In this document: positions 5,844 to 63,456 of the stretch, in pieces | Layout of the letters: every line of letters starts with the position of its first letter | Numbering within the stretch: the first letter of the stretch is position 1 | Virus record (IMG/VR): IMGVR_UViG_3300028864_000016 | Coordinates: 124,001 to 188,000 of that record | DNA: 64,000 nucleotides | From: a virus | Reading direction: 5' to 3' (one strand) | Program-made: the position numbers and the translations under genes | The notes under the pieces: model-generated | What the model was told of the DNA's origin: nothing | Database searches by the model: none | The model's input: the letters and a program-made list of their open reading frames with translations, nothing else

Positions 5844-5941
5844 AACTTATTCACTCCCTTTCTATATTGTTATTTTATACCAAATAATTTCAAAAGTCAA
5901 TTCTTATTTTTATTAATTTATTTAATTTTATATTGTTTCTT

Positions 5942-8086: not shown

Positions 8087-8965
8087 TTATATACTCATTA
8101 ATTCTGTAAATTCTATAACTTTTCCAGTTTCATTTGCTATTTCAACTATATTGGTAGCAAGTTCTTGAACTGCTGAATTTGTTTGTTCCATGCATGCACT
8201 CATTGAAACACATCCATCATTTATACCTTCTATACGAGATATTCTAAGTACATTGCTTTCTTTTAATTTTTTACTATTTTCTTTCCCCGTTTCAGTTTTT
8301 TCAAGAATAACGTTAGCCATAACTTGTAATTCTTTTATAATTTGACTTATCATTATACTAGAATCTTTAGTTTCTTGTGCGAGTTTTTTAACTTCATTTG
8401 CAACAACTCCAAATCCTTTACCTGCTTCACCTGCTCTTGCAGATTCAATATTGGCATTTAATGATAATAAATTGGTTTGATTAGCTATGTCTTTAATCAC
8501 ATCTGTTATTTTATCAATGTCTTTCATTTTAACATGTAATTCATTTGCATTATTATTGATATCAGCTATAGCATCGTGAAATATTGCCATAACTCCACTA
8601 TTGTCTTTAGCACTTTCATAAGCAAGATTAACTTCTGAAGAAATATTAACTATATTCGCTGTTACTTCTTCTACCGTTGCACTTATTTCCTCCACTGAAC
8701 CTGCTTGACCTGTTATATTATTACTAATTATAGACATCTCTTTTAATAATTTTTCATTTGATTCGGATGTTGACTTCTTATATTCTTCGAATGTTTTATC
8801 TTTTTCAATTAATGTTATATGTAGTTCTTCATTTTGTAATTCCAGTTCTTTGATTTTACTATCTTTCTTTAATTCAAGTTCTTCTAGTTTATCATTCGTT
8901 TCCTTTTCTAAAGTTATTCTTAGTTCATTTAACCCTTTTTCATTTTTAAATAATTTTTTCATCAT
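8087..8965 (-). CDS. soluble methyl-accepting chemotaxis signalling protein
   Basis: About 292 residues from the ATG after SD GAGGGAG. The N-terminal third is a charged coiled coil ([17 protein letters not shown]). The remainder is an MCP signalling domain with the highly conserved hairpin tip [20 protein letters not shown] followed by [18 protein letters not shown] at about 160-195, the region that binds CheW and CheA. There is no signal peptide, membrane helix or sensor domain, so it would act in the cytoplasm and join or disturb host chemoreceptor arrays. The adaptation-site regions look short. It lies alone behind a box-rich intergenic region. A host-captured gene used to change motility during infection is the most likely explanation. 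Confidence 0.92.
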
Positions 8966-9100
8966 ATTAATACACTCCCTCATTAATTTATTACTTGTTG
9001 GCTTTCAATACTTTGTCAACGCTAAATTGTCAGGAACTTGTATTATGTTTAGTTTTATGTCATTAATACTTTTATCACCTCTGTTTATATTAATTTATTA
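8966..9100. promoter_or_regulatory. intergenic region with boxes and a weak promoter
   Basis: This 135-base gap upstream of the chemotaxis gene has TTAATTTATT boxes at both ends. A minus-strand CTGACA, 17 bases, TATTGA pair is the best promoter candidate but is weak at -10. An alternative TTGACA nearby has no good -10 at 17 bases. Confidence 0.3.
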
Positions 9101-9677: not shown

Positions 9678-10004
9678 TTATTCATATTCTTTATATGTAT
9701 TAATAAATAAGGTATTTAAATTATGTATTTCATCTTCATCTATAGATATATTATTATTTATATATCCTAATTTGTTTTTGTCTATTACTTGATAAACTAT
9801 AATACTATTATTATTCACAGCGGTTTCATCATATACTTCATCTGAAATAATAGATTTAAATATTAATTTGTTATTTTGTTTTTCTAATACGCAATATCTT
9901 AATTTACTAGAATTAGTTCCTTTTTCTAATATACAATAGATACTATCTTTTGAAGCGGTTATTTCTTGGATACTCATCTGCTTTCCATGATATATCACAT
10001 GCAT
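9678..10004 (-). CDS. hypothetical protein (108 aa)
   Basis: Overlaps the end of the sigma-factor gene by 10 bases, with SD GAGGT inside it, so it is translationally coupled. The sequence is beta-rich (MHVIYHGKQMSIQEI, YCVLEKQNNKLIFKS). Coupling to a sigma factor would fit a regulator of it, but nothing in the sequence shows this. Confidence 0.65.
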   Translation of the reverse strand: MHVIYHGKQMSIQEITASKDSIYCILEKGTNSSKLRYCVLEKQNNKLIFKSIISDEVYDETAVNNNSIIVYQVIDKNKLGYINNNISIDEDEIHNLNTLFINTYKEYE

Positions 10005-10594
10005 AATGATACCTCATCTTTTAGTTCTATTTGTAACTTCTTTTTAATTTGTTTTATTCTATAGCGAATGCATTCTCTAGTTTTATCATACATCCTTCCT
10101 ATTTCAGCGTAATTTAATCCTTTCATAAAGTGTAAATTAATCATATCTTGTTCTTGACTAGAAAAAGTTTTTAACACTTCTGATATTTTTTGATTAGTAA
10201 TATTTAATAATGCAGATTCTTCACAATTACAATTATCATCTTTAATTGTTTCAATCATTTGTAAGTCATCAGATTCATCAACTATACTATATATACTGCA
10301 AGTTTCAATATCTCCACCACGTTTTTGTCGTTTATCTCTTTTATATGTATCAAATATAATGTCTTTAATTACTTTTTTCGCATAAGGTACGAATGACATA
10401 TTCTGTGAAATGTCGTAATAATTATAAGCTTTAATTAACCCAATATATGCTATTTGAATCAAATCATCTTTTTCATAATGTGAACACCATTTAATTACAT
10501 CTTTTGTATGTGTCATTTTATCAAATTCTTTTACTACTTCATCTAATGTCATTTCTTTATTTATACCGTTTTTACATCTTATTAATTTTTTCAT
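9995..10594 (-). CDS. sigma-70 family RNA polymerase sigma factor
   Basis: 199 residues. Region 2 at about 40-95 (KDDLIQIAYIGLIKAYNYYD, then FVPYAKKVIKDIIFDTYK) and region 4 at about 138-190 (FSSQEQDMINLHFMKGLNYA, with a helix-turn-helix ending RYRIKQIKKKL). Regions 1.1 and 3 are absent, as in SigF/G- or ECF-like and phage sigma factors. It would redirect host RNA polymerase to phage promoters. Its own promoter (10633-10661) is a good sigma-A type, so it is probably made early by host polymerase. Confidence 0.92.
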   Translation of the reverse strand: MKKLIRCKNGINKEMTLDEVVKEFDKMTHTKDVIKWCSHYEKDDLIQIAYIGLIKAYNYYDISQNMSFVPYAKKVIKDIIFDTYKRDKRQKRGGDIETCSIYSIVDESDDLQMIETIKDDNCNCEESALLNITNQKISEVLKTFSSQEQDMINLHFMKGLNYAEIGRMYDKTRECIRYRIKQIKKKLQIELKDEVSLCM

Positions 10595-10632
10595 TATTTA
10601 CTCTCCTTTTTTTATTTTAATTTGTTAATGTA

Positions 10633-10661
10633 ATAGTACTATATAATGGATATGTTGTCAA
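10633..10661 (-). promoter_or_regulatory. sigma-A-type promoter of the sigma-factor gene, flanked by two boxes
   Basis: Minus strand: TTGACA (10656-10661), 17-base spacer, TACTAT (10633-10638). A TTAATTTATT box at 10674-10683 lies upstream of -35 and TTAATTTGTT at 10617-10626 lies downstream of -10, in the 5' leader before the SD. Confidence 0.85.
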
Positions 10662-10683
10662 TGTTTATTTATATTAATTTATT

Positions 10684-15037: not shown

Positions 15038-15089
15038 TATGTTTCTATTAATTTATTAATTATCATAAGTTATCGCCTTTAAACGAGTG

Positions 15090-31147: not shown

Positions 31148-31175
31148 TCTGTTAATTTGTTGTTACTACTTTCTT

Positions 31176-31204
31176 AGTTTACCATGTTTTTCTTATCTTG
31201 TAAA
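31176..31204 (-). promoter_or_regulatory. sigma-A-type promoter of the structured leader
   Basis: TTTACA (31199-31204), 17 bases, TAAACT (31176-31181) on the minus strand. Boxes at 31218-31227 and 31152-31161 flank it. Confidence 0.78.
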
Positions 31205-31260
31205 TACCTTATTTCTATTAATTTATTGAGTTAACATAAAACATACTTTTTAACAGGTTT

Positions 31261-31831: not shown

Positions 31832-31877
31832 TCCTTGTTTTATGTATTTATATTAATTTGTTTCTTGGTACATTCTT

Positions 31878-31906
31878 ATATTAACACATACATTTTCCAA
31901 TTGCAA
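31878..31906 (-). promoter_or_regulatory. sigma-A-type promoter of the lipoprotein gene, two boxes
   Basis: TTGCAA (31901-31906), 17 bases, TAATAT (31878-31883). Boxes at 31929-31938 (upstream) and 31853-31862 (leader). Confidence 0.8.
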
Positions 31907-31937
31907 TACTTTTTTATAAGTAATTCTGTTAATTTAT

Positions 31938-33038
31938 TTAATCATCAAATATAAATCTACTAAACAATACTCCAATACTACATATAATAGTAAAAACAAT
32001 CATAACTCCTGTTGCAAAGCCACTAGTTTCAATATTAATATAGTTAAAATCTGCAAATTGTTTTCTTTCAAACTTTTGCTCTATCAAATTACCAGTATCA
32101 TTTATAGTTGTAGCAAAATTATTAATATCACATTTATCTAACATATAATCTCTTACCTCTGATTTTAATATTTCCACTTCTGACCAACTAAAAGGATAAC
32201 ACCAAGTTACCTTATCATCTCTAATTCCAAAAGTAATTACAAAATCATTCTTATTGCCACCTTGCCAATAATCTTGTAATGCAAAGCCATAGTCCTCAGA
32301 CACATCACCTAAATTTACAAATATAATATTTACTTGCTTATAAGATTTAACTTTGTCTTTATTATTAGGATTATTTGTATCATTTAGTTTTGAATTGACT
32401 TCATTTAATAAATCAATTGATTGTTGTTTGTTCGGAATGTCTCCAATAACTCTATTAATGTTATATTCACTATTAACTTCTTTAGGATAGTTTGGCAAAT
32501 TAGGATAGTCTTTTATATTTATTTCTTTATGTTTATAAATACTATAACTAGCCTGTACTTTATTTTCATATGTATGAATTGAAGCAGTTGGCTTATTAAT
32601 TGGATAATATTCATTTAGTTCTTGTGTTGAATTAACAAAACTATCATTTAACTGCCTTCCATTTGGAATTTGTGATACACTAAATTCTCCATTATCGCTA
32701 GTTTTAATATAGTTTTCTGCATCATGATGCTCCCAATACCCTTCATGATGAATTGTTTTTGTATGGGATTTACCTTTACTATCAGTTTCAGTAACAGTTT
32801 CGTCCCAAGGTTTATGATATTCATCCCATTCTTCTGTATGCTTATTTGATGTTATTTGTCCAGACCATGCTTCTGAACAATCAGTTTGTGACTTGTAATC
32901 AATAAAGGCGACTAACGAATTAATCACTAATATAGCAAGAATTGATAAAGGTATTACAAACCATTTTATATCTAATAAAAATTTACTTATAAGTGCAATT
33001 ATCCCTACAACAACTGCACATATTATAATAGTAGTCAT
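31938..33038 (-). CDS. membrane protein with a large external domain
   Basis: 366 residues. Two N-terminal helices (IIICAVVVGIIALISKFLL and FVIPLSILAILVINSLVAFI), a soluble domain of about 270 residues with His/Trp-rich segments (WDEYHKPWDETV, HHEGYWEHHDAENY), and a C-terminal helix (GVMIVFTIICSIGVLFS). Not a known family to me. It lies 1 base from the LemA-like gene, so the two probably form one envelope complex. Confidence 0.75.
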   Translation of the reverse strand: MTTIIICAVVVGIIALISKFLLDIKWFVIPLSILAILVINSLVAFIDYKSQTDCSEAWSGQITSNKHTEEWDEYHKPWDETVTETDSKGKSHTKTIHHEGYWEHHDAENYIKTSDNGEFSVSQIPNGRQLNDSFVNSTQELNEYYPINKPTASIHTYENKVQASYSIYKHKEINIKDYPNLPNYPKEVNSEYNINRVIGDIPNKQQSIDLLNEVNSKLNDTNNPNNKDKVKSYKQVNIIFVNLGDVSEDYGFALQDYWQGGNKNDFVITFGIRDDKVTWCYPFSWSEVEILKSEVRDYMLDKCDINNFATTINDTGNLIEQKFERKQFADFNYINIETSGFATGVMIVFTIICSIGVLFSRFIFDD

Positions 33039-34217: not shown

Positions 34218-35948
34218 TTACTTTACTATGTATTTCTTAAATAATTCTTTAAATATGTAATATAAACAATTAACTACAATACTGTTCCCTGCTTCTTTGT
34301 ATAACGCTGAATCTGAAATTCCTAATTCTTTTGCTCTATCAAAACATTCATCTCTAAATCCCATCAGTCTCCAACATTCTTTGGGAGTAAGTTTTCTTAT
34401 TCTGATATTATCACCTTTTTCAATAATTCCAGTTCTTTGTGAGTGATTATCTGGAAAATTTCCATATCTAGTATCTAAGCATGTACACATTCCATCTTCT
34501 CTTTCTTTTAAAACTCCTCTGTTATTAACAAAAGGAATTTTATTTATTTCTTTTATTAAAATTTGTTTCGGTTGTTTATAATCTGTAGCCGTTAAAGAAC
34601 CCATAATGCCTTTATCTCCATATACTAAATCTCTTTCACCAAATCTAGTACAATTATCTCCTTTTGTTGTTCCTATTTGGTTTAATTCATTTCTGTCAAT
34701 ATCTTCTTTTCCGTTTAATTTAAATCTATCTTGAATTTCTTGTGATAAATAATATTTTTCGTCCACTTCATCTTCTAGAAAATCTTTTAATCTCAATCCA
34801 CTATCAAATCCTTCAGGAAAATTAAATAACCCATCATCTATATCATGTCTAACACAGATAACAAATATTCTTTCTCTGTTTTGTGCTATACCATAATCTT
34901 TCGCATTTAAACAAGTAGGTTGTCCATTATCTTTTTTAGGATAATAACATTTATAACCATAAGATTCTATTTCGCTTACTATATCATTAAAGTCATCTAT
35001 AAATTTCTTTTGAATTAATGCTTTAACATTTTCTATCATTATGTACTTCGGTTTTTTGGCTTTAATAACTTCGATGCCATATTTAACTAAACCACTTCTT
35101 GTCGGTGTCCCATCTTCATTAGTTAATCCTTTTTGTTGTCCAGCTCCAGATATATCAGTACAAGGAAATGAAAAATTAAACAAATCAAAATCTATCATAT
35201 TATCATAATCTAATTGACTTACATCTCCTAGGTTATTTAAAAGTATTGTGGCTTTATAAACTTTATATAATTTATCCTTCTTTAATCTAGGGATACTAGA
35301 TTTTTGTTTTATAAAATCCCAACCTACATTTCTACTCATTAACAGTTTTCTCATTTCATCTTCTGAAGGATATTCAAAATCTAAAGTATTAGTTTTATTT
35401 ATATGTATTCCTGCATAAGAAATTATTGCATCTATATCAATTTCAGACATTCCTACTATTTCCGTGGGTACTCCAAGTTCTTTTAAAGATTGATGTAGTG
35501 ATCCAATCCCAGCAAAACTATCAAAAAGCTTAATCTTATCCATTTTAAAATTATATTTTGTAAAATTATTTGTAAATTCTTTCATTGTTATATTACCACC
35601 TTCATTATTTATTTGTATTTTGGGTTCTGTTCCTCCACCACTACCTATTCCATGTAATGTAGGGCTTAATCCTTGGTCTGAATAAACTCTTCTTCTTGAT
35701 TCAAAACCCTTGCCATCTATCATACCTACTTGTATTAATTCATTCATTTCTATTATCACTCCTTGATTAAAACTACAAGTTAAAGTTTGTGCAATTTGAT
35801 GTCCAATTCTACCACGCCTAGTTTTACTATTAGGTTGTTCAAAATTAATTGCATCTCCATCAACTCCAATTGCATAACCTTGTTTTGTAGCTTCTCTTAC
35901 TCTAATATGGTCTTTATGTATTTCTATGAAGTTATCTATTGATATCAC
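34218..35948 (-). CDS. C5-cytosine DNA methyltransferase with extra N-terminal recognition modules
   Basis: 576 residues, GTG start with SD AAAAGGAAG. Catalytic part: LFDSFAGIGS (142-150, motif I), NFSFPCTDIS with Cys263 (motif IV), MIENVKAL (VI), QNRERIFVI (VIII), RKLTPKECWRLMG (IX) and EAGNSIVV (X). It transfers methyl groups to cytosine C5. Unusually, about 135 residues precede motif I, and they resemble target-recognition segments normally found between motifs VIII and IX (REATKQGYAIGVDGD, NSKTRRGRIG; RRRVYSDQGLSPTLHGIGSG). Several similar TRD segments are also present in the normal place. No partner restriction enzyme is nearby, so it is an anti-restriction methylase, possibly with several specificities. 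Confidence 0.92.
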   Translation of the reverse strand: MISIDNFIEIHKDHIRVREATKQGYAIGVDGDAINFEQPNSKTRRGRIGHQIAQTLTCSFNQGVIIEMNELIQVGMIDGKGFESRRRVYSDQGLSPTLHGIGSGGGTEPKIQINNEGGNITMKEFTNNFTKYNFKMDKIKLFDSFAGIGSLHQSLKELGVPTEIVGMSEIDIDAIISYAGIHINKTNTLDFEYPSEDEMRKLLMSRNVGWDFIKQKSSIPRLKKDKLYKVYKATILLNNLGDVSQLDYDNMIDFDLFNFSFPCTDISGAGQQKGLTNEDGTPTRSGLVKYGIEVIKAKKPKYIMIENVKALIQKKFIDDFNDIVSEIESYGYKCYYPKKDNGQPTCLNAKDYGIAQNRERIFVICVRHDIDDGLFNFPEGFDSGLRLKDFLEDEVDEKYYLSQEIQDRFKLNGKEDIDRNELNQIGTTKGDNCTRFGERDLVYGDKGIMGSLTATDYKQPKQILIKEINKIPFVNNRGVLKEREDGMCTCLDTRYGNFPDNHSQRTGIIEKGDNIRIRKLTPKECWRLMGFRDECFDRAKELGISDSALYKEAGNSIVVNCLYYIFKELFKKYIVK

Positions 35949-37012: not shown

Positions 37013-37261
37013 TTACTTTTGCAATTTAATAATTTCTAGCACTTTAGTTTTTGCGTCTATTTCAGAAAGTTGTGTATTATAATTAAATTGTTCGTCTTTC
37101 AAAACAAACAACATTTCAGCCCAGCTAAGTCCTCCACGGCTTGCTAACCTTTCTAATGTTTGTCCACAATGATTTATAATTGCCTGTTTTTCATGTGGTT
37201 TTATTATATCTAATTCAATATATTCTTTTGAATTTGTACCAAGTATCGGGAATTTATTCAC
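37013..37261 (-). CDS. hypothetical protein (82 aa)
   Basis: Helical, with HCGQTLERLASRGGLSWAEM in the middle. No domain recognised. Confidence 0.63.
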   Translation of the reverse strand: MNKFPILGTNSKEYIELDIIKPHEKQAIINHCGQTLERLASRGGLSWAEMLFVLKDEQFNYNTQLSEIDAKTKVLEIIKLQK

Positions 37262-37292
37262 CTTTTATTTCACTCCTTCTAAAATATTCCTT

Positions 37293-37559
37293 TTATAAAA
37301 ACTCTCCAGTAACCACATTAAATCCTATTTCTTTAGTTATGTTATAATTCGTTTTTAAACAATAGTCATCAAGACTTAGTTCCTCATCATCTAATGTCCA
37401 TTCCAATGTTCTAATTAACATTATACATGGAGCTAGAAAAAGACCTTTTTCTTCTTTACTGAATTCTGCATCATTTTTCAAACCTCCTACCAATTCTTTC
37501 ATACTTTTTAAATAATCACTTTTATATTTTTCAATTATTTCTTGAGATTTCATTTGCAA
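37293..37559 (-). CDS. hypothetical protein (88 aa)
   Basis: Helical start (SQEIIEKYKSDYLKSMKELV) and a short beta-like end. SD AGGAGG. Not recognised. Confidence 0.63.
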   Translation of the reverse strand: MQMKSQEIIEKYKSDYLKSMKELVGGLKNDAEFSKEEKGLFLAPCIMLIRTLEWTLDDEELSLDDYCLKTNYNITKEIGFNVVTGEFL

Positions 37560-37606
37560 TTCCTCCTATTTATTTTAATTTGTTAACTTACCATAAAAAC
37601 ATTATT

Positions 37607-37924
37607 CTATCGTGTTTTTAGTCTCATATTTAGACCAACTTTTTGTAATACATCTTGAACCTTATTTGAATTAAGCATTTGAGTCTTTTCTAATGATTCA
37701 CAGAAATCTTCAAATGTAGCCAACTTATCTAATGGATTCATTTCTGTTATATATTTTGGTTTAAATATATGTAATCCCTTATCTGATTTAACGATTATTT
37801 GTTGTTGTGTAAAATTTATAATTATGCCTTTCTTAATATAATAAGTATCTCTTGCGTCATTTTCATATGTAATTTTATAACTTTGTCCCTCTTTTATTCC
37901 ATATTCTTTATCTAAAAAATTCAT
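37607..37924 (-). CDS. hypothetical protein (105 aa)
   Basis: Beta-rich N-terminal half (YKITYENDARDTYYIKKGII) and a helical C-terminal half. SD AAAGGAG. Downstream AAAAACA/TGTTTTT can pair just after the stop. Not recognised. Confidence 0.63.
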   Translation of the reverse strand: MNFLDKEYGIKEGQSYKITYENDARDTYYIKKGIIINFTQQQIIVKSDKGLHIFKPKYITEMNPLDKLATFEDFCESLEKTQMLNSNKVQDVLQKVGLNMRLKTR

Positions 37925-37990
37925 TTTGTCATTCTCCTTTATTATTTAATATTCTTTATAATTTGTTTAACTTCGATCAAATTCAAGACT

Positions 37991-38443
37991 TTAAAGTAAT
38001 TTATCCACTTCACATACTGGATTTTTCATATCTAAATCACTAATAGAATATACATATCCATTAAACGCTAAATGCTTATAATTAATACTATCTGCAACCA
38101 ATCTGCATTCTGAATAATCTCTTCCTAGAATTTTGCAACTATCAAAAACATCTCTCCAATGAATATTAACTAATTTCTTATTTTTATCTTCTATATAATC
38201 AATAAATCCCCCATATGCAATATCTAAAATATCTATACTACTATCAACTTTAGTTCCATCTTCTAATACTGCGAAAGTTCTATTCATTTGAGGATTACAA
38301 TAATAATATTTTATTTGTAACCATTTTGTATTTTCATTACCTATTCCTCCGCTTGTTAATCTATAATTATGAGGATATTTTTGTATAATCTTTTTTCTAT
38401 CTTTTAAAGCTTGTATTATTTCTTCGTAAGTCTTATATTCCAT
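37991..38443 (-). CDS. hypothetical protein (150 aa)
   Basis: Mixed alpha/beta. WLQIKYYYCNPQ and FAVLEDGTKVDSSIDI suggest a beta-sheet domain. No cysteine motif of note. Not recognised. Confidence 0.65.
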   Translation of the reverse strand: MEYKTYEEIIQALKDRKKIIQKYPHNYRLTSGGIGNENTKWLQIKYYYCNPQMNRTFAVLEDGTKVDSSIDILDIAYGGFIDYIEDKNKKLVNIHWRDVFDSCKILGRDYSECRLVADSINYKHLAFNGYVYSISDLDMKNPVCEVDKLL

Positions 38444-38504
38444 ATTAATTCACTCCTTAATTTATTTTAATTTCTGCATAAAATTTCCATTTTAAGACAA
38501 TTTT

Positions 38505-39047
38505 CTATAATAAATTTGCTAAAATTTTAATTATATTTTTTAATTCTTTTATCTGATTATTTAATTTTGAATTTATTGCATTATCTATATCATTTTCTTC
38601 TTGCATTCTCATAATTTCTTTTTCTCTATTGGTCAATATATTATTTAGATCATCTTCTTTCTTAGCTTGTTCCATTGATTTATATTCTAATTCTGATATG
38701 TATGATTTTTGTTTATCTATATCATTTTCTAGTTTTTGTCTAAAATTACCTAATGATATATTTGCTAGTTTATATTCTTTATTTTCTTCTTCTAATGTAT
38801 CAATGTTATTTTTAGCATTAGTAAACCATTCATCTAATTGTCTTTTATCATCTTTTAATATCTCATTTTCTTTTTCAAGCCTAAAACATTCTAATTCATA
38901 ATCTGTTCCAGCAGGATATTGATTACCACATATTTTACTATCTGTACATTTTCCTTTTTTATTTTTAGGACATTTTTCGCTTTCTTGGTAACAGGTTTTA
39001 TTTTCCTTATCTATTGCATATTGTAATTGTTCTTCTGCATAATTCAT
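38505..39047 (-). CDS. coiled-coil protein with N-terminal cysteine cluster
   Basis: 180 residues. Cysteines at about 19, 26, 33 and 40 (CYQESEKC, CTDSKIC) suggest a small metal site, followed by a long coiled coil from residue 55 to the end (LEKENEILKDDKRQLDEWF, then LEEENKEYKLA). Could be an oligomerising scaffold. Not recognised. Confidence 0.7.
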   Translation of the reverse strand: MNYAEEQLQYAIDKENKTCYQESEKCPKNKKGKCTDSKICGNQYPAGTDYELECFRLEKENEILKDDKRQLDEWFTNAKNNIDTLEEENKEYKLANISLGNFRQKLENDIDKQKSYISELEYKSMEQAKKEDDLNNILTNREKEIMRMQEENDIDNAINSKLNNQIKELKNIIKILANLL

Positions 39048-39085
39048 AAATTTTACCTCTCTTTTTATTAATTTATTAAAATATA

Positions 39086-39364
39086 TTATTCAAATTCCCA
39101 TCCATTTAAAATACAATTTTCCAACCCTTTTAATATGTATATAGCCCTATGTACTAATACCTCTTTAGCAAAAGCTTGACTCATAGGAATATCCCCTAAG
39201 TTGTTTTCTTGCTCATATTTTTGCTTCTCCCACATGATGTTTCTTCCATAATCTCTCGTATGTATTCTATTGATAATTTGCCATATGTATCCTTGGTCTT
39301 GTTTATATTTATCACAGAACTCTTCTATTCTCTCTTGAAGAAATTCTCCACTACACATTGTCAT
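39086..39364 (-). CDS. hypothetical protein (92 aa)
   Basis: First gene after the promoter at 39418. Helical, with WQIINRIHTRDYGRNIMWEK. SD GGAGGTG. Not recognised. Confidence 0.65.
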   Translation of the reverse strand: MTMCSGEFLQERIEEFCDKYKQDQGYIWQIINRIHTRDYGRNIMWEKQKYEQENNLGDIPMSQAFAKEVLVHRAIYILKGLENCILNGWEFE

Positions 39365-39417
39365 ATCAACACCTCCATTTTTATTATTATTTATCTTAAT
39401 TTATTACCTTTAAGATT

Positions 39418-39446
39418 ATCTTACTACTTGTGCTAATTACTGTCAA
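39418..39446 (-). promoter_or_regulatory. sigma-A-type promoter flanked by two boxes
   Basis: TTGACA (39441-39446), 17 bases, TAAGAT (39418-39423) on the minus strand. Boxes TTAATTTGTT at 39459-39468 and TTAATTTATT at 39396-39405. Confidence 0.85.
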
Positions 39447-39471
39447 CACTTATTTCCATTAATTTGTTTGT

Positions 39472-39684
39472 TTATATTTCATCCATATTATAGTCCTCTC
39501 TAATATAATCTATTAAATCATTAATAGTTTCCTTAATATGTTCATCATCTCTTAAAATAGGATGAATTTTAGCCATACATGAACCTTTTGCTCCTTCTGA
39601 TTTATATTTCTTATAGTTAAAATCTACCCACAACAAGGGCATTTTTGTTAGGTTTTTAGTTAATAATCTTTGTAATAGTTTCAT
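39472..39684 (-). CDS. hypothetical protein (70 aa)
   Basis: Basic N-terminal half (MKLLQRLLTKNLTKMPLLW) and acidic C-terminal half. It ends next to the 39459 box. Not recognised. Confidence 0.6.
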   Translation of the reverse strand: MKLLQRLLTKNLTKMPLLWVDFNYKKYKSEGAKGSCMAKIHPILRDDEHIKETINDLIDYIREDYNMDEI

Positions 39685-39740
39685 TTATTTTTCACTCCAA
39701 TCTTTTAAAATTAAATTTTTATCTACTTGTCTATAAAATA

Positions 39741-39956
39741 TTATTCGTTTAAAATTTTATTAATATATGGACTTTTGGTATGTTTAGTTCCATCTATTTT
39801 ATCAGCCACACATGAAAAAGCTTCAAATATTCCATCCCTATATCCCTGTACATATAACTTTTTATCATTTTCTAAAATTAATAGTTTGTCACAAACTTTT
39901 TCAAATTCATTTTCAAATTTGTGTAACAGTTCTTTTAATGATTCATTCTCATTCAT
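39741..39956 (-). CDS. hypothetical protein (71 aa)
   Basis: Helical start (ESLKELLHKFENEFEKVCDK) and GYRDGIFEAFSCVADKI. Overlaps the end of an orphan reading frame upstream. Not recognised. Confidence 0.6.
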   Translation of the reverse strand: MNENESLKELLHKFENEFEKVCDKLLILENDKKLYVQGYRDGIFEAFSCVADKIDGTKHTKSPYINKILNE

Positions 39957-40097
39957 TTTTTATTTCATCCTTTCTTAATTCATTTTCAGTTAAACCTAAA
40001 GTTTTATATGCTTGTACTATTTCTAATTTAGGGCAGTATGCCCTATAACTTAAACATCCTTTTTCAATGGATAAATACTTGATAAAATAGACATATC
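39949..40097 (-). other. orphan open frame after a slippery A7 run, no usual start codon
   Basis: A frame of about 49 codons (for example CLSYRAYCPKLEIVQAYKTL, then GLTENELRKDE) has normal-looking protein but no ATG/GTG/TTG start. It lies in the -1 frame of the 126-residue gene at 40050-40430, which has A AAA AAA in frame (40098-40104). A -1 slip there would append this segment. Alternatives: a frameshifted pseudogene or a non-standard start. A 6-bp hairpin (AGGGCA/TGCCCT) lies within it. Confidence 0.4.
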
Positions 40098-41873: not shown

Positions 41874-41925
41874 TATTACACCTCTTTAATTTATTATTAC
41901 AGTAAAATGACAATTCTATGGTCTT

Positions 41926-42366: not shown

Positions 42367-42379
42367 TTCTTCATCCTCC

Positions 42380-42529
42380 TTAATATCTAATATAACCTAC
42401 TACACCAGTTTCAATATTTCTAACTTTATAATCATCACAATCTTTACTTATGTATTCATATTTACTGCTATCTATTCTTTGTGACTGCAAGAATAGTTTA
42501 AATTGTTCTGACATTATTAATTTCTTCAT
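42380..42529 (-). CDS. small protein of 49 aa
   Basis: ATG start with SD GAGGTGAG. MKKLIMSEQFKLFLQSQRID followed by a beta-like end (YKVRNIETGVVGYIRY). The stop codon overlaps the SD of the next gene. Not recognised. Confidence 0.62.
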   Translation of the reverse strand: MKKLIMSEQFKLFLQSQRIDSSKYEYISKDCDDYKVRNIETGVVGYIRY

Positions 42530-42550
42530 AATTTCTCACCTCGATTATTT

Positions 42551-42979
42551 TTAATTTATTTCTATTCCTAATTCTTTAAAGTTTTTCTTAATTTTCCTTC
42601 TTACTACAAACCCTTTACTTCCATATGAAATTAAAACTATTCCTATAATAATTAAAAATACAAAAAACCAAGAAAACTCAATTTTTACTTCTTTAAAAAT
42701 TATTATATATGACATAAGCAACCATGGAAATTCTGTAAATACTCCGAAGATAAAAAATATCTGCCATCCATCATAGAAGTTATATTCTCTTTTTAAAATA
42801 TATTTATTATTTTCACTTGTAGAAAGGATATCATAGTTGATATTGTATTTTTCAGATTGTTTATTTATTAAATTAATATATTCAATTTGTAGTTTTGTAT
42901 TTATTTTGTCATCTATTCTGTCTTTAAGTTCTATATTTCTTATATCCTGTTCTTCTAGTAGATAATTATCTATTTTCAT
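42551..42979 (-). CDS. membrane protein with two helices (142 aa)
   Basis: Cytoplasmic helical N terminus, then two transmembrane helices (IFFIFGVFTEFPWLLMSYII and WFFVFLIIIGIVLISYGS), with a short basic tail. Function unknown. Confidence 0.68.
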   Translation of the reverse strand: MKIDNYLLEEQDIRNIELKDRIDDKINTKLQIEYINLINKQSEKYNINYDILSTSENNKYILKREYNFYDGWQIFFIFGVFTEFPWLLMSYIIIFKEVKIEFSWFFVFLIIIGIVLISYGSKGFVVRRKIKKNFKELGIEIN

Positions 42980-46725: not shown

Positions 46726-46754
46726 TACTATTTCTATTAATTTATTTAAATAAT

Positions 46755-46793: not shown

Positions 46794-46957
46794 GTTACCT
46801 ATGATTTATATAACTTCCTAAATCATTGTTTAATTCCTTATTCAACGTGTCCTATTTTGCATTATCACTAATACTACTTTAGTTTGATATGACACTCCAA
46901 AGGCTTAACTTCGGGCATAACGAACCCTACACCTCAGCATTATCGTTTTAGTGTGAT
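46794..46957 (-). ncRNA. putative omega RNA downstream of tnpB
   Basis: TnpB nucleases use a guide RNA from the 3' end of their own gene and the adjoining right end. The 164 non-coding bases after the tnpB stop, including GAGGTGTAGGGTTCGTTATG and CCCGAAGTTAAGCCTTTGGA, are far more GC-rich and structured than the surroundings, as omega RNAs are. The exact guide and element end were not determined. Confidence 0.5.
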
Positions 46958-48100
46958 TTATGCTGAATATCTACTTAGATTTATACTTGCATTATAATCT
47001 CTATCTATAACACAACCACATTCCTCACAGATATAAACTCTATCAGATAGCTTTAGTTCCTTTTTTATATGACCACACCCACTACAAGTCTTTGATGATG
47101 GATACCATTTATCAGCTTCAACAAATTCAATCCCATTAAACTCGCATTTATACTGCATTTGTCTTTTAAATTCATATAAACATTGTTCTGCAATAGCTTT
47201 TGATAAATGTTTATTTTTCATCATACCTTTAATGTCAAGTGTTTCCATAACAACTCTTGATGGTTTGGTTTTCACTATCATATTTGTTGCTTGGTGTAAA
47301 TGATTATTTCTTATATTTGTTAATTTTCTATAGACTAATTTTATTTGTTTTTCCAACTTAATCATATTATTAGTCTTATTTAATTGGTAACAATTTTCAC
47401 TCTCTTTCTTAATTTTATTATTTTCATATTTTCGATTAACTTGTTTTTGTAATCTTTTTAATTTCTTTTCTGTTTTCTTAACTTTTTTAGTTTTATTAAT
47501 ATTTTTGAATGTCATTCCATTGGAGCATATTGCTAAATCTTTGATTCCAAGGTCTATTCCTATTGATAAATCTTTATTCAATCCAACCTTAGTTTCATTG
47601 TGTTCAAACCCAAATGTTAGATACCAATATTTTCCGTCAAAATAACACCTTGGATTATTATATTTGGGCAAATTGGGAATGTTATAATTAGTTTTATACT
47701 TAACTTTTCCTATTTTTTCTAAATTTACTTTGTTATCTTGAAATTTTATAGCATCATATCTAACATAAAATGATTGTTTTGAGTTTTTCTTAGTTTTAAA
47801 TTTAGGATAATTAGATAATCCTTTGAAAAAATTTTTATATGCCGTATTTAAATCTTCAAATGCTTGTGATGTGACTTGAGCACTCACTTCTTTTATCCAT
47901 TGATAATTTATATCTTTCTTTAAAACATTATTAAATTCTTTTCTGATTATAGTTTTTGATGGATTTTGTCCTTGTTTGTAAGCATCTTCCCATTTTGCTC
48001 TTCCCCAGTTATAAGTAAATCTTGCTATACCACATGATTTAAACATTAATGTTTCTTGTTCTTTTGTTGGTTTTAATCTTACTTTTATTGACTTTATCAT
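46958..48100 (-). CDS. tnpB: TnpB, RNA-guided nuclease of an IS200/IS605-type element
   Basis: 380 residues, apparently intact. N-terminal helix-turn-helix region; RuvC-like residues Asp183 (GIDLGIKDLA), Glu286 (METLDI) and Asp368 (DRDYNAS); zinc finger CSGC (339-342) and CEEC (358-361). All catalytic residues are present, so it is a nuclease and not a nuclease-dead TldR repressor. No tnpA transposase is next to it, so it is a non-autonomous or tnpB-only element. Promoter at 48125-48153, shared -35 with the divergent ribbon-helix-helix gene. Confidence 0.95.
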   Translation of the reverse strand: MIKSIKVRLKPTKEQETLMFKSCGIARFTYNWGRAKWEDAYKQGQNPSKTIIRKEFNNVLKKDINYQWIKEVSAQVTSQAFEDLNTAYKNFFKGLSNYPKFKTKKNSKQSFYVRYDAIKFQDNKVNLEKIGKVKYKTNYNIPNLPKYNNPRCYFDGKYWYLTFGFEHNETKVGLNKDLSIGIDLGIKDLAICSNGMTFKNINKTKKVKKTEKKLKRLQKQVNRKYENNKIKKESENCYQLNKTNNMIKLEKQIKLVYRKLTNIRNNHLHQATNMIVKTKPSRVVMETLDIKGMMKNKHLSKAIAEQCLYEFKRQMQYKCEFNGIEFVEADKWYPSSKTCSGCGHIKKELKLSDRVYICEECGCVIDRDYNASINLSRYSA

Positions 48101-49034: not shown

Positions 49035-49763
49035 TTATTTTAATTCATTAATCGCTATGTCATAATATTCTTGTTCCTTTTCAAACCCTATGTAGTTTCT
49101 ATTTAATTCTTTACATGCAATAGCGGTAGTTCCACCGCCTATAAACGGATCAAGAATAATATCACACTCGTTTGAATTTAATTCTATTAATCCTTTTATG
49201 TATTCAATGGGTTTTTGAGTTGGATGTCTTTTATCTTTCCCTCTAGGTGGATTAAATTTTCTGTTCTTTGAATAATAATCTTTTTTATTTGGACATGTAT
49301 CTATGTCTAATAAATTTAATGCAGTTCCATTATCATATATTCTAACTATGTATTCTAAATTTTGACTAAATCTATTTCTATTAAGTATGCTCAATGGTTT
49401 TTCCCAAGTGAGGATTGTCCACTTTTTCTTATTAGTTAATGCCCAGTTTAGATAATAAGGTATTAACGTATCATTAGTAAATATGTAACAATTTAATTTA
49501 ATCATTATTCTTTTAAACTCATTCATCATATTATTTATTTCATTTCCTCCAAAAGAACTCATATCTTTCATCATAGGGCTATCAAAGTTGTACATAGAAC
49601 TATTAGCTATTTTTGATTTTCCTTCTGTACCATGTGTCTTTCCACCACCTTTATTGTGAAGATATGGAGGGTCTGTTATTACTAATTTAATACTTTTATC
49701 TGGAATAGCCCTTAATCCATCCTCAGAAAAGCAATCTACATTTTTTATGTAATTATAATCCAT
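49035..49763 (-). CDS. DNA methyltransferase, beta class (N6-adenine or N4-cytosine)
   Basis: 242 residues. Motif IV TDPPYLHNKGGG near residue 33 and motif I DPFIGGGTTAIACKEL near 205-220 give the beta order (catalytic motif first). KDKRHPTQKP is the usual segment before motif X. It methylates an exocyclic amine. No restriction partner is nearby; it probably protects phage DNA from host restriction. Confidence 0.92.
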   Translation of the reverse strand: MDYNYIKNVDCFSEDGLRAIPDKSIKLVITDPPYLHNKGGGKTHGTEGKSKIANSSMYNFDSPMMKDMSSFGGNEINNMMNEFKRIMIKLNCYIFTNDTLIPYYLNWALTNKKKWTILTWEKPLSILNRNRFSQNLEYIVRIYDNGTALNLLDIDTCPNKKDYYSKNRKFNPPRGKDKRHPTQKPIEYIKGLIELNSNECDIILDPFIGGGTTAIACKELNRNYIGFEKEQEYYDIAINELK

Positions 49764-50816: not shown

Positions 50817-52013
50817 TTATTTAATACTTTCACTTATTCTTTTTTTAGCAATTTCAAAATAAGGTTCATCTTCTGTATTCATCATTTCTATATCAATCCA
50901 TTCTATATTATATCCTTCTCTATTTAATTCTTCACAACTTAGTCCATGAGTACCACTTCCAGCAGTTATATCTAATGACTTACCATCTATAGGTGTAACT
51001 AATTTAATAAGCCACTTGATTAATTTTTTAGGCTTGACTGTTATATGATTACAATAATCACCCTTTTCCTTTTTAGTTGGCTTTGCACAATATAGAAAAG
51101 GTGTATAATCATCAGAATCTATATTTAAGAAAAATCTACTTGCCCCACCTTCACTTGCTGGAATATCTTTTGGTTGTACCCTTCTCCCTCCGTTTCTCTC
51201 ATGTGAAATATCCCCACTTTTCCAATCCGTACCTGCAGGTTGACCTTTCTTAATTGCTCCACTTTTTAATAAACCGCTTTGATTATCTAATTCTTGTCCC
51301 ATACATGTATCAAATATAATATTAGCTGGAAATCTACCTTCATTATGTACACAATCTCTAGCTTGGGTTAATGGTGTACTTCCAGTTCCATATAAACTAT
51401 CTGCAGTTCCAAATCCTATTGACTTTGAATTCTCTGTAAAATTACATTTAGCTTTTACTAAATCTAAATCAGCTTGATTTTTATATTCAATTCTACAAGC
51501 ATCAATATTCATAGCTCCTACACCATATTCTTTTATATTATCTATGTATTTTCCTTGTAATGGCTTTTGAAAAACTGTTATAATTTCTTTAGCTGGTTTC
51601 AATCCACTTGTTTTCCATCCATTAAATTTCTCTGCTAGTTCAGTTTCATTAGCCTTATCAAATAATTTTCCTATATCTTGATTCTTAGGGAAGCCTGTAG
51701 AATAAACCCAATCTATTTCTTCAACTATTTTAAATCCAGCATCTTCAAACGCACATTTCATTCTATGGTTTGTTTTGTGATGCCCAAATATTAACACGTA
51801 TCCACCATGTTTAACGATTCTATGTAATCCTTCTGCTCTTTGTTTACACCATTCATAAAAATTACTATATGTATCCCATTTCTTACCCATGAATTTTAAA
51901 TCATATGGAAAATCAGATATACAATTGTCAAAATAATTATCTTCATATTGTTTCATTACTTCTAAATTATCACCATTTATTAATGTTCCGTTTCCTATTT
52001 TAATTTGTTTCAT
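50817..52013 (-). CDS. DNA methyltransferase with an SDFPY motif IV
   Basis: 398 residues. NGDNLEVMKQYEDNYFDNCI, then SDFPYDLKFMGKKWDTY (motif IV, where most enzymes have DPPY); HGGYVLIFGHHKTNH; a long insertion with phage-type TRD features; and SLDITAGSGTHGLSCEELNR (motif I). The order is beta-like and the family is that of phage site-specific amino-methyltransferases. Asp-Phe-Pro-Tyr is unusual but keeps the charge, Pro and Tyr. Probably anti-restriction. Confidence 0.87.
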   Translation of the reverse strand: MKQIKIGNGTLINGDNLEVMKQYEDNYFDNCISDFPYDLKFMGKKWDTYSNFYEWCKQRAEGLHRIVKHGGYVLIFGHHKTNHRMKCAFEDAGFKIVEEIDWVYSTGFPKNQDIGKLFDKANETELAEKFNGWKTSGLKPAKEIITVFQKPLQGKYIDNIKEYGVGAMNIDACRIEYKNQADLDLVKAKCNFTENSKSIGFGTADSLYGTGSTPLTQARDCVHNEGRFPANIIFDTCMGQELDNQSGLLKSGAIKKGQPAGTDWKSGDISHERNGGRRVQPKDIPASEGGASRFFLNIDSDDYTPFLYCAKPTKKEKGDYCNHITVKPKKLIKWLIKLVTPIDGKSLDITAGSGTHGLSCEELNREGYNIEWIDIEMMNTEDEPYFEIAKKRISESIK

Positions 52014-58610: not shown

Positions 58611-58649
58611 CTCCTTATGTAATTTATATTAATTTGTTTGTCTAAACTA

Positions 58650-58678
58650 ATATTAGCATAAACTACCAATCAATGCAA
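58650..58678 (-). promoter_or_regulatory. sigma-A-type promoter flanked by two boxes
   Basis: TTGCAT (58673-58678), 17 bases, TAATAT (58650-58655) on the minus strand. Boxes at 58690-58699 (upstream) and 58629-58638 (leader). Confidence 0.78.
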
Positions 58679-58710
58679 TAGTAATTCTATTAATTTATTT
58701 AAATATTTTA

Positions 58711-61975: not shown

Positions 61976-62536
61976 TTATATTGCTTTAGTAACTTTTATA
62001 TCCATGGTCTCTTCAAAGCTTTTTACTAATAGAACTACCATAGATAGTTTCTTTTCTCCATATATTTTATCAATAACCTCTTTAAAATCATTATAAACTA
62101 ATCTATTGTTTTTACCATATCTATCTATTAATAAATCAAATATTCTATTCTTAGCTAATTCTGATAAAGATATTCTTGAAATATTATTATCTCTACAAAA
62201 TATCATAGTCTTATTATAAATCTTTTCTTTGGTTAAATTAGAATCTAAAATAGTTTCATTATTGTTGTTTAATTTATCAATAATATCTAAAAATGTTTTA
62301 TCAATAGGTAGCTGAATATTCTCAAAATCAATAATCATTTTTTCTCTATTTATATCAGTCCATTTAATTATATTTAGGTTATTTAACTTTACCCCATATC
62401 GTGATAATATAAATATTGCTTTATCTTCATTTGTGCAATCTAAGTTGTCTAGCATATTATAAAACTCATTTAAATTCTTGTAATCAACTTTTCTCACTCT
62501 TTCCATTGCTATTTTTTCAATATCTTCTTTATTCAT
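61976..62536 (-). CDS. hypothetical helical protein (186 aa)
   Basis: Start at the ATG after AAAAGGATG. Helical with FILSRYGVKLNNLNIIKWTD, which is loosely like a tyrosine-recombinase segment (LRYGLRLSEILNLKWSDI), but the Arg/His/Tyr catalytic set is not found. It is followed by a short stem (GAGTTGA/TCAGCTC) near 61950. Function unknown. Confidence 0.65.
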   Translation of the reverse strand: MNKEDIEKIAMERVRKVDYKNLNEFYNMLDNLDCTNEDKAIFILSRYGVKLNNLNIIKWTDINREKMIIDFENIQLPIDKTFLDIIDKLNNNNETILDSNLTKEKIYNKTMIFCRDNNISRISLSELAKNRIFDLLIDRYGKNNRLVYNDFKEVIDKIYGEKKLSMVVLLVKSFEETMDIKVTKAI

Positions 62537-62616
62537 TTTAATACACATCCTTTTAATTTATTTCATACTTATCATTTCCATTATTATAGAAATTATTTAT
62601 TTAGTATGTATTTTAT

Positions 62617-63357: not shown

Positions 63358-63406
63358 ATGTATCAACCTCTCTTTATTTTCTTAATTTGTTGAACTCTAT
63401 GATATT

Positions 63407-63435
63407 AGTATAATATTTATCTTTTACTTTGTCAA
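63407..63435 (-). promoter_or_regulatory. consensus sigma-A-type promoter flanked by two boxes
   Basis: TTGACA (63430-63435), 17 bases, TATACT (63407-63412) on the minus strand. Boxes at 63446-63455 and 63382-63391. It drives the AP2/HNH gene. Confidence 0.86.
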
Positions 63436-63456
63436 CATATTTCTATTAATTTATTT

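What the first reader, a model, noticed from the sequence alone, without database searches (positions are those of the whole stretch)
10617..10683. A conserved 10-base box flanks many sigma-A promoters on both sides
Directly seen: the box TTAATTTRTT (plus strand) occurs dozens of times between genes and almost always in one orientation. At 10617/10674, 31152/31218, 31853/31929, 39396/39459, 58629/58690 and 63382/63446 a promoter with exactly 17-base spacing lies between two copies, 57-76 bases apart. Other promoters (15009, 46697, 56707) have one copy directly upstream of -35. Many further copies lie just upstream of SDs. AT-rich composition alone would not give one orientation or this spacing. 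Inference: a shared operator (a phage repressor or activator, perhaps looping), an UP-element-like site for RNA polymerase, or a leader RNA element.
Basis: partly seen in the sequence, partly recalled or inferred. Interest (0 to 1): 0.82.

Follow-up and report, generated by a model that had tools for sequence, protein, structure and literature searches.

The report
Genome-wide operator array of giant phage
A ten-letter DNA word repeated about 210 times across a giant phage genome, oriented with the genes, is probably the docking site of a phage master regulator, a distant relative of the repressor that keeps Bacillus phage SPbeta dormant, and it seems to control many of the phage's genes.

Summary
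TTAATTTRTT (AAYAAATTAA on the coding strand) occurs 61 times in the window, always in gene orientation, against 8.7 expected. The window lies in a 218-kb phage record (about 27% G+C) that carries 210 copies, and the orientation flips where gene direction flips. Between genes there are 136 sense copies against 4.6 expected. Two positions recur: 10-12 bases upstream of -35 ('U'), and between -10 and the SD or directly before the SD ('D').

The best explanation is an operator array. SPbeta's SPBRE, the mapped operator of the master repressor MrpR/YopR, sits in the same two positions in the same single orientation, with a different sequence. Outside the window this phage encodes an MrpR-family protein, next to a control region with three promoters and four boxes that is conserved in three relatives. 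Element type tracks MrpR type among five Spbetavirus genomes.

Many boxes sit between co-directional structural genes with no visible promoter, like mycobacteriophage stoperators. Binding, repression and elongation arrest are inferred, not shown.

An UP element, a lone -10 promoter and looping are disfavoured. A leader-RNA role or a phage-polymerase promoter is not excluded. I rate it a new variant of a known kind.

The parts
10674..10683 (-). Box AATAAATTAA, upstream (U) copy, 12 nt before -35
10656..10661 (-). -35 TTGACA
10633..10638 (-). -10 TACTAT, 17-bp spacer
10617..10626 (-). Box AACAAATTAA, downstream (D) copy between -10 and SD
9995..10594 (-). Gene behind this promoter: sigma-70-family protein (region 2 and region 4)
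   Evidence: Pfam Sigma70_r2 6.2e-8 and Sigma70_r4 3.3e-7; PHROG sigma factor 1.1e-17
31152..31227 (-). U/D box pair (31218 and 31152) around TTTACA-17-TAAACT
31853..31938 (-). U/D box pair (31929 and 31853) around TTGCAA-17-TAATAT
39396..39468 (-). U/D box pair (39459 and 39396) around TTGACA-17-TAAGAT
58629..58699 (-). U/D box pair (58690 and 58629) around TTGCAT-17-TAATAT
63382..63455 (-). U/D box pair (63446 and 63382) around TTGACA-17-TATACT, ahead of an HNH/AP2 endonuclease gene
15048..15057 (-). U box 10 nt before -35 (TTGAAT-17-TAAGAT)
46737..46746 (-). U box 11 nt before -35 (TTGACT-17-TATACT), after a terminator-like hairpin
5913..5922 (-). U box 12 nt before TTGACT-17-TAAAAT
38457..38466 (-). 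Pre-SD box abutting GGAG directly
41886..41895 (-). Pre-SD box abutting AGAGG directly
37575..37584 (-). Typical pre-SD box, SD 7 nt downstream
62553..62562 (-). Pre-SD box ahead of the truncated MrpR-like ORF
61976..62548 (-). Truncated MrpR-family ORF (190 aa, C-terminal part only)
   Evidence: tblastn 1.35e-18 to the G002 MrpR-like protein; hmmsearch 3.2e-13

Best explanation
The box (core AAYAAATTAA, extended AAYAAATTAATARAAATA) is the asymmetric operator of a phage master regulator of the MrpR/YopR/SroF family (tyrosine-recombinase fold), encoded outside the window at record 203031-204188 (-). It is the functional counterpart, in this lineage, of SPbeta's SPBRE. Bound at the U site (just above -35) and the D site (just below -10), the protein would block sigma-A initiation. 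Bound at gene junctions without a promoter, it would act as an oriented roadblock, as stoperators do. Shown: the sites, their orientation and spacing, the regulator's family, the conserved regulator/control-region synteny, and element type tracking regulator type in five Spbetavirus genomes. Inferred: that this protein binds this box, and that the outcome is repression or elongation arrest.
For: (1) SPBRE is the ChAP-seq and EMSA-mapped operator of MrpR (PMC10516654). In SPbeta DNA it lies 7 nt above -35 (aimR), between -10 and SD (yopV, yopM), and on both sides of one promoter (yonX), in sense orientation in all seven promoter regions examined. (2) G000 203031-204188 matches Pfam MrpR_N_CB above cut-off (33.5 vs 27 bits), an HMM of ten MrpR homologues (1.3e-15) and PHROG 5830, the MrpR family. 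Its model's best PDB matches are phi3T SroF bound to DNA and SPbeta MrpR (model pLDDT 65). (3) The preceding gene matches the YopQ family PHROG 5732, as in SPbeta. (4) The regulator is followed by 2-3 sigma-A promoters interleaved with 3-4 boxes and then a PemK/MazF-like gene in G000, with the same arrangement in relatives L073, G002 and G003. (5) Spbetavirus genomes with SPbeta-type MrpR carry SPBRE; those with the 29%-identical phi3T type lack it and carry GAATAAAAATAAAA in the same U/D positions. (6) Box type does not simply follow DnaE phylogeny: L025/G013 (46% DnaE) has it, G003 (87%) has a variant, while the regulator of L073, from the same metagenome as G013, is the closest one (53%). 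(7) Substitution spectrum typical of specific protein recognition.
Against: No binding or expression data. The box sequence itself does not resemble SPBRE. G002 shares the G000 box although its syntenic MrpR-like protein is only about 25% identical, lower than G003's 33% with a variant box, so covariation is imperfect inside this group. About 210 copies is far more than SPbeta's ten ChAP-seq peaks. Many boxes lie at gene junctions without a visible promoter. G001, G004 and G005 contigs (fragments) show no MrpR_N_CB match.
Confidence: 0.66

Rival explanations
1. The box is the core of a promoter read by a phage-specific transcription apparatus: the phage sigma factor at 9995-10594 or the YonO-like single-chain RNA polymerase at record 37251-40043.
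For: Single orientation, repeated ahead of genes, lineage-specific sequence, present in the structural arm. The phage encodes both a sigma-70-like protein and a YonO-like polymerase. The YonO promoter was unknown in the 2017 paper (PMC5467207).
Against: No second motif at a fixed distance upstream or downstream of the box. In 13 cases the SD starts 0-3 nt after the box and in 22 more at 4-7 nt, so a start site 5-7 nt past a -10-like box would lose the SD. The fixed 10-12 nt spacing to sigma-A -35 is unexplained. SPbeta's YonO is reported to use one start for one late operon.
Confidence: 0.14
2. A leader-RNA element near the SD (translation enhancer, processing site or RNA-binding-protein site).
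For: 77 of 167 intergenic copies are within 45 nt of a start codon and outside the U class, always on the sense strand. Many have no promoter between the upstream stop codon and the SD.
Against: U copies lie upstream of -35, several after terminators, with spacing fixed at 10-12 nt, so they are not in the transcript of that promoter. SPBRE, with the same two positions, is a DNA operator.
Confidence: 0.11
3. The U copies are UP elements for the RNA polymerase alpha subunit and the other copies are incidental A+T-rich sequence.
For: Position about -57 to -47 and A+T-rich.
Against: Only T3->C is clearly tolerated (45 seen, 1.4 expected); the other single changes are at or near background, the largest being A10->T (10 against 3.1). 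D and pre-SD copies outnumber U copies. The sequence changes between close relatives.
Confidence: 0.04
4. Composition artefact of A+T-rich, purine-rich coding strands.
For: The coding-strand A bias (44% A) raises the background.
Against: Shuffles that keep dinucleotides and strand give 4.6 against 136. The reversed-pattern control in the whole record gives 32 and 17 against 134 and 76.
Confidence: 0.01

Closest known systems
SPBRE and the MrpR (YopR) master repressor of Bacillus phage SPbeta; SroF of phi3T
   Same: Asymmetric A+T-rich element always in transcription orientation, just above -35 or between -10 and SD, sometimes flanking one promoter. MrpR-family regulator with a YopQ-family gene before it.
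   Different: Box sequence is different. About 210 copies in 218 kb instead of about ten ChAP-seq peaks, also between structural genes. The regulator here is longer (385 aa) and very diverged, and is followed by an operator-rich control region and a PemK/MazF-like gene.
Stoperators of cluster A mycobacteriophages (L5, TipsytheTRex repressor)
   Same: Many asymmetric sites spread over the genome, in promoters and in short intergenic gaps, oriented with transcription (PMC9283540).
   Different: Unrelated repressor architecture (HTH domain plus a second DNA-binding domain, not a tyrosine-recombinase fold) and unrelated sequence. Elongation arrest is not tested here.
Promoter sets of phage-encoded RNA polymerases or sigma factors (T7, T4 late, AR9, SPbeta YonO)
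   Same: Lineage-specific word repeated ahead of genes in one orientation.
   Different: No fixed start-site geometry. The box can abut the SD, and it has fixed spacing to host-type -35 boxes.

Membership tests
SPBRE-type operator | Sense-oriented element at U and D positions of sigma-A promoters | tested here: met
SPBRE-type operator | SPBRE consensus sequence (CAAATACAAAAAATATGTATA type) | tested here: not met
   Box is AAYAAATTAA. It is a counterpart, not the same element.
SPBRE-type operator | Bound by an MrpR-family protein | not testable with these tools
   Needs ChAP-seq or EMSA
SPBRE-type operator | Cognate MrpR-family gene in the same phage | tested here: met
   An MrpR-family gene is present; that it is the cognate one is inferred
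MrpR family (protein at record 203031-204188) | MrpR N-terminal core-binding domain | tested here: met
   PF22822, 33.5 bits against cut-off 27
MrpR family (protein at record 203031-204188) | Tyrosine-recombinase fold closest to MrpR/SroF | tested here: met
   Foldseek ranks 1-7 are SroF and MrpR/YopR; moderate model, pLDDT 65
MrpR family (protein at record 203031-204188) | Loss of recombinase catalytic residues | tested here: inconclusive
   No canonical R...HxxR...Y set is apparent in alignments, but alignment is weak there
MrpR family (protein at record 203031-204188) | YopQ-family gene directly upstream | tested here: met
   PHROG 5732, E 5.7e-27; SPbeta YopQ hits the same family
Stoperator system | Asymmetric sites in short intergenic gaps, oriented with transcription | tested here: met
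Stoperator system | Orientation-dependent arrest of elongation by the bound repressor | not testable with these tools
   Needs reporter or transcription assay
Stoperator system | Cluster A type repressor homologue | not tested
   Not searched; the candidate regulator found is of another fold
UP element | Degenerate A+T tolerance | tested here: not met
Lone -10 phage promoter (T4 late type) | Start site about 5-7 nt downstream with SD beyond it | tested here: not met
   SD within 0-7 nt of box end in 35 non-U cases; start sites themselves not mapped

The most novel reading that the evidence does not exclude
A tyrosine-recombinase-fold repressor silences a whole 200-kb-class phage by binding some 200 oriented sites, not only at promoters but as elongation roadblocks at gene junctions: a stoperator system evolved independently of the mycobacteriophage one, with operator and repressor diverging together across SPbeta-related phages.
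Probability: 0.3. Interest if true: 0.8.

Novelty: new variant of a known kind. Interest (0 to 1): 0.62.

Why it matters
It extends the MrpR/SPBRE control system, known from Bacillus SPbeta phages, to a giant A+T-rich phage lineage, and it supplies the candidate regulator and its operators in one step. It suggests that these phages each carry their own single-orientation operator word tied to their own MrpR version, which would predict immunity groups from sequence. Operators between structural genes would be a second, unrelated origin of stoperator-like silencing, testable with one protein and one reporter.

Tried and rejected
SPBRE identity: rejected, the sequence differs. Composition artefact: rejected by strand-aware shuffles and reversed-pattern control. 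Looping between paired boxes: pair distances are not helically phased. UP element and lone -10 promoter: see rivals. YonO promoter test by co-occurrence: YonO is found only in G000 among the contigs held, but the others are fragments, so uninformative. Box type against DnaE phylogeny: not congruent. Paenibacillus SPbeta-like prophages: AATACATAT looked enriched in intergenic DNA, but many copies fell in coding sequence, so not used. FADO and vB_BcoS-136 words overlap the -10 region and were not counted as U/D elements. phmmer of the MrpR-like protein alone against PDB found nothing; the family signal needs a profile.

Full report
WHAT IS THERE. The window is positions 124001-188000 of a 218,173-bp virus record, with no tRNA genes in the window. 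Window genes include a DnaE-type DNA polymerase, a RecJ-like exonuclease, primase, DnaB-like helicase and anaerobic NrdD. The replication proteins are distantly related to those of SPbeta-group and other Firmicutes phages.

COUNTS AND CONTROLS. The window holds 61 exact copies, all in one orientation, against 8.73 in dinucleotide shuffles. The record holds 134 and 76 in the two orientations, against 32 and 17 for the reversed word. The orientation flips where gene direction flips: minus-strand genes at 0-26 kb and 117-218 kb, plus-strand genes between. In intergenic DNA, read in the direction of the genes, there are 136 copies against 4.6 in strand-preserving shuffles; antisense 12 against 1.6; in coding DNA 37 against 16.7. 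It is the most over-represented intergenic word, followed by SD words. Single substitutions fall to or near background, except T3->C, 45 against 1.4; the next largest, A10->T, is 10 against 3.1. This is the pattern of a specific protein contact, not of general A+T richness.

TWO POSITIONS. TTGA occurs 19 times at offsets 10-12 after the box, where about 3 are expected, and not at 8 or 13. This 'U' class carries an extension TARAAATA up to the -35. The second position is 6-20 nt after a -10 and/or shortly before an SD. 94 of 293 called genes have a box within 60 nt of their start. In the plus-strand (structural) arm, many copies sit between a stop codon and the SD of the next gene with no recognisable promoter.

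RELATIVES. Records with DnaE 95-100% (G001, G002, G004) and 46% (G013) identical carry the same box in large numbers. G003, 87% identical, has a changed one (AAYAAATTATTAAATTAAT above -35; AAYAAATTAAAT before SDs). G005, 52% identical, has AATAAAAATATAATATA in the same positions.

THE SPBETA PARALLEL. SPbeta's SPBRE is the binding site of its master repressor MrpR (YopR), by ChAP-seq and EMSA (PMC10516654). I read seven SPBRE promoter regions: the element is upstream of -35 at aimR, between -10 and SD at yopV and yopM, on both sides of the yonX promoter, and in sense orientation in all. The sequence differs from the box, the arrangement does not. Phage phi3T has an MrpR only 29.5% identical and carries GAATAAAAATAAAA instead of SPBRE, again above -35 or before an SD, in sense. 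In five Spbetavirus genomes the element type follows the MrpR type (SPbeta, Goe12, SPR against phi3T, BUCT083).

THE CANDIDATE REGULATOR. An HMM of ten MrpR homologues finds one strong hit in this phage, record 203031-204188 minus (E 1.3e-15). Pfam MrpR_N_CB scores above its cut-off. It shares PHROG 5830 with MrpR and is preceded by a PHROG 5732 gene, as SPbeta mrpR is preceded by yopQ. An AlphaFold model of moderate confidence (pLDDT 65) matches best phi3T SroF bound to DNA, SPbeta MrpR/YopR, and the SroF-antirepressor complex. Directly behind the gene come a terminator-like stretch, three sigma-A promoters interleaved with four boxes, and a PemK/MazF-like gene. The same order is found in L073 (53% identical regulator), G002, and, with the changed box, G003. 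G016, the record behind L073, carries 127 boxes. The window itself holds a truncated C-terminal MrpR-like ORF at 61976-62548.

MECHANISM. I conclude that the box is the operator of this MrpR-family regulator (confidence 0.66). U and D binding would occlude sigma-A polymerase. Binding at gene junctions would stop elongation, as in mycobacteriophage stoperators, which are also asymmetric, oriented with transcription and placed in short intergenic gaps (PMC9283540). Steps shown: sites, positions, orientation, specificity, regulator family and synteny. Steps inferred: binding, repression and arrest. Activation instead of repression is not excluded.

LIMITS. Covariation inside the giant-phage group is imperfect: G002 shares the G000 box with a 25%-identical regulator, while G003, at 33%, has a variant. 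The contigs of relatives are fragments. Gene calls are mine. About a dozen antisense intergenic copies, mostly in the left arm, are unexplained; some abut -35 boxes of promoters that fire in the gene direction.

Noticed in passing
   Followed up: partly
record 37251-40043 (+), outside the window: YonO-like single-chain RNA polymerase (tblastn 1e-25 to SPbeta YonO, with an ADFDSD motif); a YonN-like protein match lies at record 42379-42642.
   Followed up: partly
61976-62548 (-): Truncated MrpR-family ORF directly downstream of an HNH/AP2 endonuclease gene; possibly a broken second regulator copy.
   Followed up: partly
46834-46903 (-) and 46958-48100 (-): RAGATH-18 RNA (73.5 bits, gathering 44.9) beside a TnpB/IS605 OrfB gene.
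   Followed up: no
8087-8983 (-): Protein with a methyl-accepting chemotaxis signalling domain in a phage genome.
   Followed up: no
34218-35948, 49035-49763, 50817-52013 (-): Three DNA methyltransferase genes in one phage window.
   Followed up: no
record 0-26 kb (L001): Antisense boxes, some fused to or abutting -35 elements (such as TTAATTTATTGACA), mainly in the left arm.
   Followed up: partly
L064 and L076 (phi3T, BUCT083): Sense-oriented GAATAAAAATAAAA element in U and D positions in phages with the phi3T-type repressor, replacing SPBRE.
   Followed up: yes
record 202615-203030 (L008:14615-15030): Control region with three promoters and four boxes between the MrpR-like and PemK/MazF-like genes, conserved in relatives.
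   Followed up: yes
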